A stretch of DNA of 54,353 bases from a virus. The notes beneath the pieces were generated by a model. The model searched no databases. It was not told the origin of the DNA and saw only the letters and a program-made list of their open reading frames with translations. Position 1 is the first letter of the stretch. Every line of letters begins with the position of its first letter. Positions 23,636 through 43,184 of this stretch are shown here, piece by piece. Position numbers and translations under genes: made by a program. The DNA lies in IMG/VR virus record IMGVR_UViG_3300028706_000007, positions 1 to 54,353 of that record; one strand, 5' to 3'.

Positions 23636-25764
23636 TTAAATTCAAAAACTTAACAATAAAAAACTTCATGAGTATCGGAAATGCTACTCAGGCAATATCA
23701 TTGGATCGTACCGATTTAACATTAGTACTCGGTGAGAACCTAGATCTAGGTAGCAATGGGTCAAGAAATGGTGTTGGAAAAACATCTCTCATTAATGCAT
23801 TAAGCTATGCATTATACGGTGGTGCATTGACCAATATCAAAAAACCCAACCTAATAAATAAAACAAATGTAAAAAATATGTTGGTTAGTATTGATTTTAC
23901 GAAAGACAATAAAGCCTACAGGATAGAGCGAGGAAGAAAACCGAATGTGCTTCGATTCTTTATTAATGATGAAGAACACATGGATGATGACGCACAAGGT
24001 GATAGCAGAGAGACACAGATGTTAATTACCTCTGTATTAGGGTTAAGCCATGCAATGTTTAAACATATAGTAGCACTCAATACATACACTGTGCCATTCT
24101 TAAATCTTAGCGTGAAAGACCAACGTGAAATTATCGAAGAACTGATGGGGATCACTCTTTTATCAGAGAAAGCACTAATGCTGAGAGATGAAATCAAGGA
24201 ATCAAAAGATATCATCAAAGAAGAAGATATTATCATTGCAACTATCAGTAACACCAATGCAAAGATACAAGAACAAATCACAAGCATAAAGATAAGCGAA
24301 ACTGAATGGGATACATCTCATATTGATACCATTGCTAGTTTATCCAATGATATAAAGGATTTGCAATCAATAGATATTGACGGCGAGATCAATAATCATG
24401 GGCTAGTAGATGAATGGAACATTGAACAAGATGAATTGAAACATATACTTAGTGTTGAATTGGAGGAATATAACCAACTAACTGATCAACTTCAAAAGCA
24501 ATACATCACCGATTTAGCTGAGTACAACAATGTAAAAGATTTACATCAGAAGCAATACAATGATGAGTTGGGGAACTACAACACATTATCTCGTGATGAA
24601 GCAGATGCACATCAGCTAATGGTTACAGCATTACAATCCACCTACACTGATCAGCTACAAGAGTTTGAGTCATATGAAAGTATGTTAACTGTGTACAACG
24701 ATAAACATAATGACCTCGAAGTATTAAATCAACAAAAAAGTGAGGTGTCTAATAACATTACAATTACCCAAGGTAATAAATGTCCATTATGCAAGCAAGA
24801 TGTTGATGATCACAACCACACCGACTTACTGAAAAAGTTATCAGATGAGTTAAGTGTCATAGAGGATAAAATGGATACTCTCTCTGATGCCATATCGGAG
24901 TTAGAAACCACTATCACTAGCACAAATGAAGTTATTAGACCGAATGAACCTATTTTACCTGAATTAACTAGTGAACTCACTAAACCGACACTAACTGCAT
25001 TAGGTGTTGATATTCCAACACTAACAAAACCGAAAATAAGCAAACCTGTAATGGGGATTGGTAAAACTAAACCAATAACATTATATGATACATTAAAGCA
25101 AGCACTAGAACATAAAAATTTACTTGGTAATTTACAGGTCAAGTTAGCAGACGAAGAAAAAGAGCCTAATCCATATACCATTCAAGTCAAGGACATGGAG
25201 ACTAATCTAATACAAACAATTAATTACGATATCATCAATGAAACAGCGATATTACTAGATCATCAGGATTTCTTGTTAAAATTACTTACCAATAAGGATA
25301 GTTTTATTCGTAAATCCATCATTGAACAAAATTTAGGATATCTGAATACTAGGTTATCATTTTATACGGCTAAAATTGGGTTACATCAGGAAGTCAAGTT
25401 CATTAATGATTTATCTGTTGAAATCACAGAAATGGGGCAGGATTTAGATTTTGATAATCTATCACGAGGCGAGCGTAATCGAGTTATATTATCATTAAGT
25501 TGGTCATTTCGTGATGTATGGGAGAGTTTATACACACCAATTAATGCTATTTTCATTGATGAAGTCATAGATTCTGGGATGGATGCAATCGGTGTTGAGA
25601 ACAGCTTATCTATTCTCAAAGGAATGGCACATGAACGACAAAAGAGTTTATGGTTAATTAGTCATAAAGATGAACTAGCTAGCAGAGTAAATAATGTATT
25701 AACTGTTACGAAAGAAGATGGGTTTACTACATTCAACGACGGGGAGCAATATGATGCCATTTAA
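23632..25764 (+). CDS. 46: Recombination endonuclease ATPase subunit gp46-like (Rad50/SbcC type)
   Basis: 710 residues; T4 gp46 is 560. The Walker A is SRNGVGKT (K50, T51), the zinc-hook C384-P-L-C387 lies mid-protein between two long coiled-coil-prone arms, the ABC signature LSRGERN is near residue 610, and Walker B AIFIDEVIDS follows. The arms hold a repeated YNxLxxQ/QKQY pattern near 275-340. The protein is the ATPase partner of gp47, clamping DNA and controlling the nuclease. It overlaps gp47 by four bases and the following radical-SAM gene by about ten bases, which indicates coupled translation. The extra length lies in the coiled coil, which is variable in this family. Confidence 0.95.
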   Translation: MIKFKNLTIKNFMSIGNATQAISLDRTDLTLVLGENLDLGSNGSRNGVGKTSLINALSYALYGGALTNIKKPNLINKTNVKNMLVSIDFTKDNKAYRIERGRKPNVLRFFINDEEHMDDDAQGDSRETQMLITSVLGLSHAMFKHIVALNTYTVPFLNLSVKDQREIIEELMGITLLSEKALMLRDEIKESKDIIKEEDIIIATISNTNAKIQEQITSIKISETEWDTSHIDTIASLSNDIKDLQSIDIDGEINNHGLVDEWNIEQDELKHILSVELEEYNQLTDQLQKQYITDLAEYNNVKDLHQKQYNDELGNYNTLSRDEADAHQLMVTALQSTYTDQLQEFESYESMLTVYNDKHNDLEVLNQQKSEVSNNITITQGNKCPLCKQDVDDHNHTDLLKKLSDELSVIEDKMDTLSDAISELETTITSTNEVIRPNEPILPELTSELTKPTLTALGVDIPTLTKPKISKPVMGIGKTKPITLYDTLKQALEHKNLLGNLQVKLADEEKEPNPYTIQVKDMETNLIQTINYDIINETAILLDHQDFLLKLLTNKDSFIRKSIIEQNLGYLNTRLSFYTAKIGLHQEVKFINDLSVEITEMGQDLDFDNLSRGERNRVILSLSWSFRDVWESLYTPINAIFIDEVIDSGMDAIGVENSLSILKGMAHERQKSLWLISHKDELASRVNNVLTVTKEDGFTTFNDGEQYDAI

Positions 25765-27526
25765 ACTAGCAAATATCACCGAATACCAATTAGAAATTAC
25801 ATCAGGGTGCAATGCTAGTTGTCCACAGTGCCCTAGAAATATTAACGGGGGTAATGTGAACCCATATTTAGATGTATCACACTTATCACAATACGCAATT
25901 GAAACTGCATTTACTAAAGAAATATGTGAATCTACCAAACGAATATTTTTTTGCGGTAGTTATGGCGATCCCATTGTTCATCCCGACTTCTTAGCTATTT
26001 TAGCAGCCTTTAGAAGAAAAAACCCAACACTATGGTTGTTTATACACACCAATGGCAGTGTCCACAACGCATCATATTGGAAAAAAATGGCAGGTATAAT
26101 AGGTGATTATGGTCACATTGACTTTAATATTGATGGATTAGCTGATACTAACCATATATACCGTAGAAATACCGATTTTAATACAATCATAGACAATGCC
26201 CAAACATTTATTAATAATGGGGGTAAAGCAAATTGGAACTTTATAGTGTATAAACACAACGAACACCAAGTCGATGAAGCACGGTTGTTATCTTCCATAA
26301 TAGGTTTCAGCGAATTCAAAACAAGGTCTACTGGGCGGTTTTTAAACCATTGCACAATGGAAGAAATGGATGGATGGCCTATAGAAAATAGATTAGGTGA
26401 ACAAGTAGGTATACTGGAGGTTCCACTCAATGAAGAATACCACAATAAAAGTTTAGCGGCGTTGCCTAAACTCAAACAAGAAACCAATATATCAGAATAT
26501 TTCAACAATACACGCATCCAGTGTGATGCACTAAACGAACACAACGCAAATAATGATTACAACAAAAAAGATGAAGGCAAAGTATTAATAAATGCTGATG
26601 GGTGGGTAATGCCTTGTAATTTTTTCAATCATAATTTACATGATGCTAGATTCCACGACCGGTATATACTTCCAGGTAGCAATGATTTAAGTTTTTTGCC
26701 AAACGGAAAGAACCAAATACAAGATCTCTTTAGCAGACACAATGCAAAATCAGAGTTGAATATTAACCATACTTCATTGCATAACATATTTCAAAATAGC
26801 TTCTGGGATGAAATTACCGATGGGTTTGATAAAAATATCAATGATGGTCGCATATTCGAATGTGCCATGACATGTGGTGAAGAATTGCACAAAGTATGGG
26901 ATCAGGTTCCTCCTTCGACACCAGCATTCTTGATAACCGGTGGCAATAGAGGATTAGGATTAGAAATAAAAAATAATTTCAATGGAACATCAATTGCTAG
27001 GTCAGAAGACAACGATATCATGGCAGATATAACTAGTAATAGTGATTTAGAACGCATAGCATTGGAAAGTTTAAAGTATGATGTTTTTGTGAATTGTGCG
27101 TTTGATGGGCCACCTGGTGAAGAATGGACTAATTTCGCCCAAGTTAACCTACTAATAAAAATATATGACATTTGGAAAGAAAATAATAAAGAAGGTCACA
27201 TAATAAACATTGGTAGCATCGGTGAAAAGAATATAGTCGCACCAGAACCAACATTCGAACGGTATAGAATAGCAAAATCAGCATTAGCACATGCTAGTAA
27301 ACAGTGCACCAACGCATTTAAGAACGATTTTGTTAAATTCAGAACAAGTTTATTATCCATTGATAGGCTTGATACACCCATTACTAGGTCAAATAAATCA
27401 TGGACGGGTAATGGATTAGATTGCGGTGATGTAATAAAATCCATAGAATATATTTTAAGCATAAACAGTAATACATGCATTGAAGAAATAGTTTCATGGG
27501 TAAATTACAAATACAAAGGCACGTAA
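25754..27526 (+). CDS. Radical-SAM / short-chain dehydrogenase fusion
   Basis: 590 residues from ATG 25754; an adjacent ATG at 25751 is also possible. GGGGAG lies seven bases upstream, inside the end of gp46. Residues 1 to about 380 form a radical-SAM enzyme: C19-x3-C23-x2-C26 within SGCNASCPQCPR for the iron-sulfur cluster, and later cysteines in GWVMPCNFF and ECAMTCG that resemble a SPASM-type auxiliary cluster site. Residues about 388-590 form a short-chain dehydrogenase: LITGGNRGLGLEI for the nucleotide, a central NCAF in place of NNAG, INIGSIGEKN with the catalytic Ser, and YRIAKSALAHASKQ with the Y-x3-K pair. Both halves keep their key residues. The substrate is unknown; peptide, sugar or nucleotide modification are all possible. 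It is the last gene before a non-coding region. Confidence 0.82.
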   Translation: MPFKLANITEYQLEITSGCNASCPQCPRNINGGNVNPYLDVSHLSQYAIETAFTKEICESTKRIFFCGSYGDPIVHPDFLAILAAFRRKNPTLWLFIHTNGSVHNASYWKKMAGIIGDYGHIDFNIDGLADTNHIYRRNTDFNTIIDNAQTFINNGGKANWNFIVYKHNEHQVDEARLLSSIIGFSEFKTRSTGRFLNHCTMEEMDGWPIENRLGEQVGILEVPLNEEYHNKSLAALPKLKQETNISEYFNNTRIQCDALNEHNANNDYNKKDEGKVLINADGWVMPCNFFNHNLHDARFHDRYILPGSNDLSFLPNGKNQIQDLFSRHNAKSELNINHTSLHNIFQNSFWDEITDGFDKNINDGRIFECAMTCGEELHKVWDQVPPSTPAFLITGGNRGLGLEIKNNFNGTSIARSEDNDIMADITSNSDLERIALESLKYDVFVNCAFDGPPGEEWTNFAQVNLLIKIYDIWKENNKEGHIINIGSIGEKNIVAPEPTFERYRIAKSALAHASKQCTNAFKNDFVKFRTSLLSIDRLDTPITRSNKSWTGNGLDCGDVIKSIEYILSINSNTCIEEIVSWVNYKYKGT

Positions 27527-27579
27527 CAAAGGCATATAACAAAGGCATATAACAAAGGCATATAACAAAGGCATATAAC
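27515..27579 (+). repeat. Five 13-bp tandem repeats
   Basis: Five head-to-tail units of AAAGGCATATAAC; the first unit reads AAAGGCACGTAAC and contains the stop codon of the radical-SAM/SDR gene. The other four are identical. They lie directly before the structured RNA candidate. Iteron-like origin repeats, protein-binding sites or simple slippage product are all possible. Confidence 0.9.
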
Positions 27580-27599
27580 ACATTTTTTGGTCTATAATC

Positions 27600-28292
27600 T
27601 ATTGATAGTCTAGCTTGGGACGGTTAACACAAGCGGTAACACTCCCCACAAGTGGAGGACACCTAATCCCTGGGCAATAGCAGGGATCATAGCTACTACC
27701 CCTCTGGGGATGAAGATGCAATGCGCCTCGTATTAATGCGTTTAGCTATGAGATAAGGATACGATTATAGGCTAAAAGATGTTGCTCTGAAAGAAAAAAG
27801 ATTCAACAACAAATTCAAATAATGTGTTTCGATAGTGAATATTATTTGAATTCCCGTCATAAATGTAATTATTGGTAGTAAGGAGAATGAACCCAATTGT
27901 ATTACGCAAAGTTCTAGGGTAGAAGGTATTCGGATGACCGCCTTCGTGTTTATGTGTATAGACCATAAACAATCCCTTATCACATCTGTCCGACCGCGGC
28001 TCACACGAAGAGTAGGCTATTGGATTTAACTTTGTTTGTCCATCGGATAGGCAAAGTTTGTCCAAAAGGTCTACACGAATATATAAGGTCAACCAATAAC
28101 ATAAAATACAATTGGCATAGTAATATTACCTTAATTAATCTATATACCGTATCATTGGAATTAAAAATGGGAATGAGTGCCAACGAGTTCCCAGATGCCG
28201 TAAGGCATCTCTACACTATTAATATAATTTAACACTTTGGTATATGTAAGGATAGGTTTAATATATAGCGACCTATTAGAAATAAAATAGGT
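27600..28292 (+). ncRNA. Large structured non-coding RNA candidate
   Basis: No convincing gene lies between 27530 and 28307, yet the sequence is full of perfect complementary arms. Local hairpins include 27666-27672 with 27681-27687, 27812-27823 with 27841-27852 (12 bp), 27948-27954 with 27964-27970, 28028-28034 with 28052-28058 plus outer 28020-28024 with 28061-28065, and 28193-28199 with 28204-28210 closed by a GTAA tetraloop. Longer-range arms are 27688-27695 with 27743-27750, 27893-27900 with 28108-28115, 27927-27932 with 28076-28081 and 27942-27949 with 28003-28010. The loop TAGACC 27959-27964 can pair with GGTCTA 28068-28073 as a pseudoknot. A TATAAT at 27593-27598 may be the -10 box, and a hairpin at 28271-28292 may end it. 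Size and complexity recall the giant phage RNAs GOLLD and ROOL; I cannot confirm membership. Ends are estimates. Confidence 0.68.
28271..28292. terminator. Hairpin between convergent units
   Basis: ACCTATT (28271-28277) pairs with AATAGGT (28286-28292) around an eight-base loop. It lies between the RNA candidate (plus) and the gp26 partner frame (minus), where transcription converges. On the plus strand it is followed by a weak T-rich stretch, so it may end transcripts from either side. Confidence 0.4.
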
Positions 28293-28307: not shown

Positions 28308-28538
28308 TTAAAAATAAGGTAATCCTGTTTTCTTGGTAGTTTCTAAATTATCTTTAATGATCTTATTAATTGTAGACCTTTCATCGTATGATAGCTGAAG
28401 TGCTTGCACATATGAAACTCCACCACGCATGTTCCAACTGATCCTTAATGCTTCCTCCCTTATGCTATTAGCTTCCTTTTCCATGCCATCCAACTCTTTA
28501 CTGATATCTTCTGCACTAGAAACTAATAGCTTTATCCG
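28308..28538 (-). CDS. Short partner frame of gp26, likely expressed by -1 frameshift (gp51-like or tail assembly chaperone extension)
   Basis: A frame that continues from the 3' end of gp26 in the -1 register and ends at 28308. Downstream of the slip site it encodes about 76 residues: RIKLLVSSAEDISKELDGME, then SIREEALRISWNMRGGVSYV and a C-terminal NLETTKKTGLPYF. It has no good ribosome site; its possible starts are a TTG at 28493 and an ATG at 28484. The helical MRGG-containing core looks like the small proteins annotated as gp51-like in marine T4-like phages. Because gp26 ends on a slippery stretch, a gp26 fusion product is the more likely main product, as in tail assembly chaperones of other tailed phages. 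Which start is used is open. Confidence 0.65.
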   Translation of the reverse strand, partial: RIKLLVSSAEDISKELDGMEKEANSIREEALRISWNMRGGVSYVQALQLSYDERSTINKIIKDNLETTKKTGLPYF

Positions 28539-29365
28539 AAAAAATTTGACATATCCAATGTAAACGGCTGTTCATATTCATGCCCACATTCTTTTTCGTT
28601 GCATTTAATATTCAATGGTTTAAGTTCATTATCATTCTTCATTCCAATGACATAATCTTTTATGCGTTTATATACGACTCTGTCGCAATTATGCAAAAAA
28701 TCATTGATGAAATCTTCTTCCTTGACTATATTATCTGGAGTTTTGATATAATTGATATTTTGGGTTAGTGCTTTGAGTGATAATTCTGTCATGCTAGCAA
28801 ATGCAGCAGATAATCGTTTGAGTTTTTCCTCCTCCTCCATTTCTGCATCTTCTAGTACACTTGCCAATTTTTGTTCTTCAAATTGAATTACGCTATTTTC
28901 ATTGATTTGCTTATATGACAATGGTTTGAAGAAGATATTTAAATCACCAATATTCACTGATTTCTGGTAATCCGGTGATTTAAGTTGATCTAGTATCGTG
29001 CGTAAATCCAATGAATAAGTAGCAGTTTCCTTACAGGCAGGGCATGTAGTATCTATTTCCATTGAATGTCCGTAACTTGCAATTCTAATGGATGCTAATA
29101 TAGCATCAAAATCAACTGCGGGAATGATCCAAGGATCTAGGATATTAGGCACACAACTTTTGATAACATTCATAACTGCGGTGCCATTGTACAATGCATC
29201 TGGTGTTCTGTATGTTATTTCATCAATTGCTGTCATTGGGTAAATCGGCAATTCGTTATTTGGTGGCATATCTAATGTATTTTCTGGATAAAAGTTACCA
29301 TTGCTTGGTAATTTTAGGTAGATACTTGGTTGTCTGAAATAGTTGGATAGCGGGTTGTTTGACAT
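28532..29365 (-). CDS. 26: Baseplate hub assembly protein gp26-like
   Basis: 277 residues; T4 gp26 is 208. It starts MSNNPLSNYFRQPSIYLKLP and carries the T4 baseplate-assembly family pattern: LPSNGNFYPENTLDMPPNNE, then ELPIYPMTAIDEITYRTPDA, and a four-cysteine zinc-like site made of TTCPACKE near residue 105 and KCNEKECGHEY near 260. AGGA lies six bases or so before the ATG. The family helps assemble the baseplate hub and has the size and gene position of a tail assembly chaperone next to the tape measure gene. It ends SNFFG at a slippery heptamer leading into the following -1 frame. It is divergent from the tape measure gene, not in line with it. Confidence 0.85.
   Translation of the reverse strand: MSNNPLSNYFRQPSIYLKLPSNGNFYPENTLDMPPNNELPIYPMTAIDEITYRTPDALYNGTAVMNVIKSCVPNILDPWIIPAVDFDAILASIRIASYGHSMEIDTTCPACKETATYSLDLRTILDQLKSPDYQKSVNIGDLNIFFKPLSYKQINENSVIQFEEQKLASVLEDAEMEEEEKLKRLSAAFASMTELSLKALTQNINYIKTPDNIVKEEDFINDFLHNCDRVVYKRIKDYVIGMKNDNELKPLNIKCNEKECGHEYEQPFTLDMSNFFG
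28538..28547 (-). promoter_or_regulatory. Probable -1 frameshift site at the end of gp26
   Basis: In the gp26 frame the codons read TCA AAT TTT TTC GGA TAA. This contains A-AAT-TTT and, overlapping it, T-TTT-TTC, both of the X-XXY-YYZ form that allows both tRNAs to re-pair after a one-base backward slip. The slip leads into the open frame ending at 28308. The gp26 stop is only six bases downstream, so slippage would add about 76 residues. Confidence 0.6.
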
Positions 29366-42477: not shown

Positions 42478-42500
42478 AATGTTCTACTAATTAGAACATT
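42478..42500 (+). terminator. Hairpin between two head-region genes
   Basis: AATGTTCTA (42478-42486) pairs perfectly with TAGAACATT (42492-42500) around the loop CTAAT. No long T-run follows, so terminator strength is uncertain; it may protect mRNA ends. Confidence 0.45.
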
Positions 42501-42551
42501 TATGCAGAAACCCCTCTGCGTAGTCATAGAACGATTTTCAAGGAGAAAAAA

Positions 42552-43184
42552 ATGGGACGACCAATAAATAAAAAGCACTTTGGTAACACAAACGAAGGCG
42601 GTTTAGGCGGCGAAGGCTTAGACGGAGTATTAGTAACAGCAGCTGGCACTGGTTATTCAACCGGTGAAGCAGTAACAATTTCAGCACCACAATTACCAGG
42701 TGGTATACAAGCAACAGCAACAATTGTATCAGATGGCACTGTTGTATCTGTAACCGTAACAGAAGCAGGTACTGGTTACACATCAGTACCAACAATTACA
42801 TTTGCAACAGGCAATGCAGATGCAACAGGCACAGCGGTATTAACATCGACTAAGGTGAATGCTATTTCATTGACTGCATTCGTAACTGGTGGCAGTGATC
42901 AAATTGGTGATATAGTTGCACAAAAAGGTTCAAGGCGTTTTAGAGTAACAACTGCAACTGGTACTGAAGTCTGTAAATTAGTAACAAGTACACCGAATGC
43001 ACCTGGTGAAATGCGTATTACAGCAACAGATTCAGTAAGTGGAACATATTTTATTAGTAAAATTTCAGCTGGAACATGTACTGTTGTGCGTGGCACAGGC
43101 ACAGAATTTGCGGATGGTGTTAAAGTTGCTTGGACGAAAGGTTCAGCGGTATTGGACTATTCAGTATCAATGACCAATGCATAA
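42552..43184 (+). CDS. Virion-type protein with GTGY repeats and shared QKG domain
   Basis: 210 residues with AAGGAG before the ATG. It starts MGRPINKKHFGNTNEGGLGG. Residues 26-95 hold two beta repeats with TAAGTGYSTGE and EAGTGYTSVPTITF, a common short repeat in phage surface proteins. Residues 110-210 carry IGDIVAQKGSRRFRVTTATG and CKLV, like the domain in the preceding gene. Gly/Thr/Ala/Val-rich and beta-strand-rich, with no enzyme motif. Position between capsid and fibre genes and a strong terminator after it suggest a virion protein made in large amount, such as a head decoration protein. Confidence 0.65.
   Translation: MGRPINKKHFGNTNEGGLGGEGLDGVLVTAAGTGYSTGEAVTISAPQLPGGIQATATIVSDGTVVSVTVTEAGTGYTSVPTITFATGNADATGTAVLTSTKVNAISLTAFVTGGSDQIGDIVAQKGSRRFRVTTATGTEVCKLVTSTPNAPGEMRITATDSVSGTYFISKISAGTCTVVRGTGTEFADGVKVAWTKGSAVLDYSVSMTNA

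What the first reader, a model, noticed from the sequence alone, without database searches (positions are those of the whole stretch)
27600..28292. Large, elaborately folded non-coding RNA candidate in a T4-like phage
About 690 bases without a convincing gene lie between a metabolic-type gene and the gp26 region in an otherwise tightly packed genome. By eye it holds a perfect 12-bp stem (27812-27823 with 27841-27852), several perfect 7-8 bp hairpins with short loops, one closed by a GNRA-type GTAA loop, nested long-range arms (27893-27900 with 28108-28115 enclosing 27942-27949 with 28003-28010), and a loop-to-single-strand pairing (27959-27964 with 28068-28073) that would make a pseudoknot. 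That combination is typical of large ornate RNAs such as GOLLD and ROOL, some of which occur in phages and form RNA-only cages. It could be a divergent member or a new class.
Basis: partly seen in the sequence, partly recalled or inferred. Interest (0 to 1): 0.88.

Follow-up and report, generated by a model that had tools for sequence, protein, structure and literature searches.

The report
Large structured RNA of jumbo phages
The gap holds a real, roughly 600-base folded RNA that very large bacterial viruses carry in lakes and in laboratory collections; only its first quarter was previously catalogued, and what it does is unknown.

Summary
Window 27605-28210 (+) encodes a large non-coding RNA, not chance folding. 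Its first 136 bases are a sub-threshold but significant match to Rfam's Polynucleobacter-1 motif (30.4 bits, E 1.8e-6). In other freshwater phage contigs that motif scores 82-120 bits and proves to be only the 5' part of an RNA of about 450-500 nt. 37 aligned relatives support 70 base pairs: 96% of cells are paired, 47 pairs show compensatory changes, and two pseudoknots are included. Every main helix has a window counterpart.

RaK2-like jumbo phages carry the same architecture in 3-5 unannotated copies per genome, each behind a middle-type promoter.

A rule I cannot explain: two 7-nt segments flanking one hairpin differ between phages but are identical within each RNA (116 of 119; window ACACGAA twice).

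It is not GOLLD, and no intron, RNase P or tmRNA model matches; ROOL also gave nothing, but without a positive control. My best inference is a stand-alone, trans-acting RNA scaffold that offers two identical tags to one phage-specific partner. That mechanism is inferred, not shown.

The parts
27593..27598 (+). perfect -10 hexamer TATAAT just upstream of the RNA (candidate promoter)
   Evidence: sequence; the 17 RaK2-like copies also have TATAAT directly upstream; transcription not shown
27605..28210 (+). whole non-coding RNA as delimited by homology (5' end estimated from the -10 box, 3' end = terminal hairpin)
27608..27743 (+). 5' domain, homologous to Rfam RF01718 Polynucleobacter-1
   Evidence: 30.4 bits, E 1.8e-6 in the 54-kb record; below gathering score 37
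27613..27634 (+). helix H1 (27613-27617/27630-27634)
   Evidence: counterpart of helix 1; position
27666..27687 (+). hairpin H3, 7 bp (27666-27672/27681-27687)
   Evidence: counterpart of helix 2
27688..27750 (+). helix H4, 8 bp (27688-27695/27743-27750), closing the conserved CUACCCC..GGGGAUGAAGAUGC element
   Evidence: covarying helix 3
27770..27781 (+). conserved block GGCUAAAAGAUG, unpaired in the consensus structure
   Evidence: shared with relatives
   Evidence: covarying hairpin; 12 of 12 paired in the window
27831..27981 (+). pseudoknot PK2: H6 loop 27831-27834 (GAUA) with 27978-27981 (UAUC)
   Evidence: helix 8: 6 of 6 pairs with double changes; also in 15 of 17 RaK2-like copies; short in the window
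27856..27938 (+). pseudoknot PK1: 27856-27860 (GUCAU) with 27934-27938 (AUGAC)
   Evidence: 33 RNAs 100% paired, all 5 pairs with double changes, window included
27916..27977 (+). helix H8 (27916-27919/27974-27977)
   Evidence: covarying helix 10; window letters
27922..27945 (+). hairpin H7 (27922-27926/27941-27945), its loop holds the 3' strand of PK1
28003..28009 (+). heptamer copy 1, ACACGAA, preceded by CUC
   Evidence: family rule
28028..28058 (+). hairpin H9 (28028-28034/28052-28058) between the heptamers
   Evidence: helix 12
28073..28079 (+). heptamer copy 2, ACACGAA, preceded by UCU
28169..28192 (+). hairpin H11 (GGGAAU..GAGUUCCC)
   Evidence: counterpart of helix 13
28193..28210 (+). 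terminal hairpin H12 with GUAA loop
   Evidence: counterpart of covarying helix 15
28308..28493 (-). convergent small ORF downstream; its positional counterpart is the small ORF between RNA and gp26 in relatives
28532..29365 (-). gp26-like baseplate hub gene, syntenic marker
   Evidence: PHROG 150; tblastn

Best explanation
The region encodes a stand-alone structured RNA of about 600 nt, a divergent member of a jumbo-phage RNA family whose 5' domain is Rfam's Polynucleobacter-1. Shown by comparison: a multi-helix 5' domain, two interlocked pseudoknots (PK1, PK2), a 3' domain in which two identical 7-nt segments flank a hairpin, and terminal hairpins. Inferred: it is transcribed from its own sigma-70-type promoter and acts in trans. 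Inferred, weaker: the two identical heptamers are docking sites for one and the same phage-specific partner (another RNA or a protein), so the RNA works as a two-site scaffold or sponge. My separate estimates: real conserved structured RNA 0.97; trans-acting rather than cis-regulatory 0.8; two-site docking 0.35.
For: RF01718 match E 1.8e-6. The best match in the window of a model built from the 3' core of relatives lies downstream of it, 27894-28083, E 0.014. 70 pairs on 37 relatives: 96.2% paired against 81% in shuffles, 47 pairs with double changes, 0 of 500 shuffles reach it. PK1 paired in 33 of 33 RNAs including the window. Same slot: GIY-YIG gene just upstream in 100 of 132 loci, gp26 convergent downstream in 95, so there is no downstream gene there to regulate in cis. 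RaK2-like copies start right after a TGAAAC..TGnTATAAT promoter; CBB and GAP32 have a promoter class with -10 TATA and -35 TGAAACG, in CBB mostly ahead of a region rich in DNA-synthesis genes (PMC5259590). No coding signal: longest open stretches equal shuffles. Heptamer identity 7/7 in 116 of 119 RNAs, significant at two position pairs against a tree-based null, and again in the window, which was not used to find the rule.
Against: No transcript has been seen. The window's RF01718 score is under Rfam's gathering score. No complement of the heptamers is enriched in the RNA itself, and no partner was found. In some RaK2-like copies the RNA lies upstream of genes in the same direction, so a cis role there is not excluded. 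My covariation test is a home-made version of R-scape. The structure counted was written from one member of the alignment, which favours it over slid versions.
Confidence: 0.5

Rival explanations
1. It is an RNA-only homo-oligomer (cage or ring) like GOLLD and ROOL, and the function lies in the assembled particle. Not exclusive with the best explanation.
For: Similar size, phage origin, dense long-range pairing and pseudoknots; GOLLD and ROOL assemble that way in cryo-EM (PMC12286853). A similar-sized orphan RNA is the most abundant ICP1 transcript (PMC7567579).
Against: No model relation to GOLLD. No tRNA in the window. Matched identical heptamers are not what loop-loop kissing between copies predicts: that needs complements, and none are enriched. 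raiA (monomer) and HEARO (disordered without its protein) show that large RNAs need not form such assemblies (PMC12286853).
Confidence: 0.2
2. It is a cis-acting element: a 3' UTR of the upstream gene, or a leader that controls a downstream gene, as the 2010 survey allowed for Polynucleobacter-1.
For: The RNA follows closely after the GIY-YIG stop codon in most freshwater loci; Weinberg 2010 lists Polynucleobacter-1 with y, y, ? in its class columns (PMC2864571), which I read from memory of that table as a possible cis-regulator.
Against: The next gene is convergent in the freshwater slot. The upstream gene differs (GIY-YIG, endonuclease VII, radical SAM protein here). The RaK2-like copies sit next to unrelated genes and have their own promoter. 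Rfam now types it as a gene.
Confidence: 0.12
3. It is the primer transcript of a replication origin, as in T4 middle-promoter origins or ColE1 RNA II (both from general knowledge).
For: Up to five copies per genome, fairly evenly spaced and co-oriented, each behind a middle-type promoter.
Against: GC skew does not switch at the copies except at one strand-bias boundary, and the promoter motif is confined to the same strand anyway, so co-orientation is uninformative (one genome). Two freshwater contigs of about 346 kb have one detected copy each.
Confidence: 0.07
4. The matched heptamers are template-jump sites for copying of the RNA by a reverse transcriptase.
For: Template jumping needs identical, not complementary, repeats flanking a segment, which is the pattern seen.
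Against: I did not search for a reverse transcriptase. The rest of the structure is not explained.
Confidence: 0.03
5. Chance folding or an unannotated gene.
For: An antisense open frame of 106 codons, 27772-28092.
Against: Covariation; relatives show no longer open frames than shuffles.
Confidence: 0.01

Closest known systems
Polynucleobacter-1 RNA (RF01718, Weinberg et al. 2010)
   Same: Its 141-nt model covers the 5' domain of type-A relatives (82-120 bits) and, weakly, of the window (30.4 bits).
   Different: The model stops before both pseudoknots. The full RNA is about 450-600 nt, is found in jumbo phages, and has subtypes and RaK2-like relatives that the model does not find.
GOLLD (RF02032)
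   Same: Large ornate RNA of phages; a jumbo phage (Phosso) carries a true one.
   Different: No match of the GOLLD model to any member tested; different slot; no tRNA in the window.
ROOL (RF03087)
   Same: Similar length, phage-borne, pseudoknotted (PMC12286853).
   Different: No match, though no positive control rang in that run.
ICP1 ~800-nt and phage K long non-coding transcripts (PMC7567579, PMC9241854)
   Same: Large non-coding transcripts of lytic phages in gene-free gaps.
   Different: No relation shown: searches with a RaK2-like member list neither phage among the credible hits.

Membership tests
Polynucleobacter-1 (RF01718) | score at or above the gathering score of 37 bits | tested here: not met
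   window 30.4 bits, E 1.8e-6; relatives 82-120 bits. The window is therefore called a divergent homologue, not a member by Rfam's rule.
Polynucleobacter-1 (RF01718) | the motif's helices can form | tested here: met
   H1, H3, H4 in the window, covarying in relatives; the direct RF01718 alignment has some non-standard pairs
Jumbo-phage RNA family defined here | pseudoknot PK1 | tested here: met
   5 of 5 pairs in the window
Jumbo-phage RNA family defined here | two identical heptamers after CUC and UCU flanking a hairpin | tested here: met
   ACACGAA at 28003 and 28073; 2 of 5000 shuffles reach it
Jumbo-phage RNA family defined here | slot upstream of convergent gp26 | tested here: met
   the GIY-YIG gene usual in relatives is absent in the window
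Jumbo-phage RNA family defined here | expressed as a discrete transcript | not testable with these tools
   no RNA-seq held
GOLLD (RF02032) | match to the family model | tested here: not met
   with a positive hit in W05 as control;
GOLLD (RF02032) | tRNA genes near or within | tested here: not met
   none in 54 kb
ROOL (RF03087) | match to the family model | tested here: inconclusive
   no match but nothing rang in the controls
GOLLD/ROOL-like RNA cage | homo-oligomer | not testable with these tools
   needs cryo-EM or mass photometry
group I/II introns, RNase P, tmRNA, OLE, HEARO | match to the family model | tested here: not met
   cmscan of all 4227 Rfam families over the stretch, E up to 10, none of these listed; ARAGORN

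The most novel reading that the evidence does not exclude
A previously unrecognised superfamily of large ornate RNAs of jumbo phages, of which Rfam's Polynucleobacter-1 is a fragment. It is expressed early to mid infection, in several copies in RaK2-like phages, and works through a pair of lineage-specific but internally identical 7-nt tags by a mechanism with no known precedent.
Probability: 0.45. Interest if true: 0.9.

Novelty: new variant of a known kind. Interest (0 to 1): 0.8.

Why it matters
It turns a 141-nt orphan motif into the 5' quarter of a full phage RNA with a supported structure. It links lake metagenomes to cultured E. coli, Salmonella, Cronobacter and Klebsiella jumbo phages in which the RNA can be deleted and studied, and it adds a class beside GOLLD and ROOL. 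The matched heptamers make a precise prediction about a shared binding partner. All four copies in phage PBECO4 sit in gaps with no annotated feature.

Tried and rejected
Direct DNA search of phage records with the window stretch gave only chance hits. The gp26 protein query found only the same population in viral contigs. Complements of the heptamer inside the same RNA: not enriched. Replication-origin idea: no GC-skew support in the one genome checked. Coding: no signal. GOLLD and ROOL. Phosso's 1-kb gap near gp26 has a very low folding energy (no shuffles run) but no sequence tie was found. In the genome collection, 5 of 45 pattern hits are clear and all lie in Methylococcales MAGs; three more have marginal scores. 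Four freshwater members tried have no relative among phage records by blastn. Papers: no description of this RNA in jumbo phages found; only open-licence papers could be searched, and a transcriptome paper on the jumbo phage PA5oct was not held.

Full report
The gap. The upstream ORF (radical SAM domain, short-chain reductase-like C-terminus) ends at 27526 and the next ORF is convergent and begins at 28308. The plus strand folds at -197.6 kcal/mol against -163.1 for shuffles (z -6.1); the minus strand is less unusual (z -3.4). No tRNA or tmRNA is present, and no Rfam family reaches its gathering score in the stretch.

A known motif at the 5' end. With permissive settings the best match is Polynucleobacter-1, RF01718, at 27608-27743 (E 1.8e-6 for the whole record). 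It is below the gathering score, so by Rfam's rule the window is not a member. Weinberg et al. 2010 list the motif as found in Burkholderiales and fresh water/estuary (PMC2864571).

Relatives. A pattern taken from the motif found 18 viral stretches, of which 15 are strong RF01718 matches (82-116 bits). Reading on from the motif showed that the complete ones share several hundred further conserved bases. A second pattern, placed 3' of the Rfam model, returned at least 120 stretches, including subtypes that RF01718 does not detect. The RNA lies directly downstream of a GIY-YIG endonuclease gene (SegE family) in 100 of 132 loci and faces gp26 on the other strand in 95. The window keeps the gp26 side of this slot.

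Structure. On 38 non-redundant relatives a tree-based G-test (my own version of R-scape) gave 16 significant pairs, 13 of them in the predicted structure. On a separate alignment of 37 relatives I wrote out 70 pairs in 15 helices. 96.2% of cells pair (shuffles 81.4%), 47 pairs have changes on both sides, and 375 cells carry such a change; none of 500 shuffles reaches any of these values, and sliding the partner by 1-3 columns drops pairing to 44% or less. Two of the helices are pseudoknots. PK2 joins the loop of the long hairpin to a strand downstream, with all six pairs showing double changes. PK1 joins CCGUUG to the loop of the next hairpin. Across freshwater, RaK2-like and window sequences PK1 is paired in 33 of 33, with all five pairs showing double changes and all four Watson-Crick combinations at the last pair. 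Four of the five PK1 pairs were fixed by my search pattern in the freshwater set, so their variation comes from the RaK2-like copies and the window, which were not found with that pattern.

The window. Every main helix has a counterpart: H1, H3, H4, the 12-bp hairpin H6, PK1 (27856-27860/27934-27938), H7, H8, a short PK2, H9, H11 and the terminal GUAA hairpin H12. A covariance model of the 3' core places its best window match at 27894-28083; I think the first positions of that alignment are misplaced because the window carries an insertion after PK1's 5' strand. The 27942-27949/28003-28010 pairing competes with H7, and the other two long-range pairings have no support that I found.

RaK2-like jumbo phages. 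In Erwinia, Xanthomonas and Escherichia jumbo phages the same slot holds an unannotated gap of about 770-840 nt. The gap sequence occurs 3-5 times per genome on one strand. In PBECO4 all four copies lie in coding-free gaps. The freshwater model finds some of these copies (best E 0.0012), PK1 is shared, and PK2 is re-formed with different sequences in 15 of 17 copies by my reading. The copies start after a TGAAAC-like element and TGnTATAAT. Buttimer et al. describe a promoter class with -35 TGAAACG in phage CBB, mostly ahead of a region rich in DNA-synthesis genes, and in GAP32 (PMC5259590). Two freshwater contigs of about 346 kb have one detected copy each.

The heptamer rule. Two segments, after CUC and after UCU, flank hairpin H9. 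They are identical at all seven positions in 116 of 119 RNAs although ten different heptamers occur, while the three bases before them are never identical. Two position pairs pass the tree-based null although they never form standard pairs. The window has CUC-ACACGAA and UCU-ACACGAA (2 of 5000 shuffles). RaK2-like copies show the same layout with CGUCAG, CGUCAAG or CUUCAAG (read by eye from the alignment). No complement is enriched in the RNA itself. Identity rather than complementarity suggests that both bind the same outside partner; that is inference.

Function. Direct evidence is absent. The convergent neighbour, own promoters and varied gene contexts favour a trans-acting RNA. The two-site docking model is my best guess at about one in three. 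An RNA-only assembly as shown for GOLLD and ROOL (PMC12286853) remains possible. Replication-origin and template-jump ideas are kept as minor rivals; GC skew gives no support to the former.

Noticed in passing
window 42480-42554 (+): freshwater-2 RNA (RF02980, 52.3 bits, above its gathering score) ends at the start of an ORF at 42552-43184 that has no Pfam match.
   Followed up: partly
window 27527-27580: About four tandem copies of AAAGGCATATAAC lie between the upstream ORF and the RNA's -10 box.
   Followed up: no
PV764938.1 33533-34001 (W05, L248): Sinorhizobium jumbo phage Phosso carries a true GOLLD RNA (186.6 bits); not checked against its annotation.
   Followed up: no
L004:8233-9246 (-): Phosso has a 1-kb gene-free gap near gp26, about where other phages carry this RNA; it folds at -317.9 kcal/mol (no shuffle control) and could be another large RNA.
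   Followed up: partly
L207, L209, L211, L223, L227: Clear matches to the RNA in Methylococcales MAG contigs, probably mis-binned phage contigs, which hint at methanotroph hosts.
   Followed up: no
window 25718-27526 (+): One ORF joins a radical SAM domain to a FabG/short-chain-reductase-like C-terminus (weak PHROG match), downstream of gp46.
   Followed up: no
W02 (MW879342.1), whole record: The TGRRAC..TGnTATAAT motif occurs 34 times on one strand and never on the other.
   Followed up: partly
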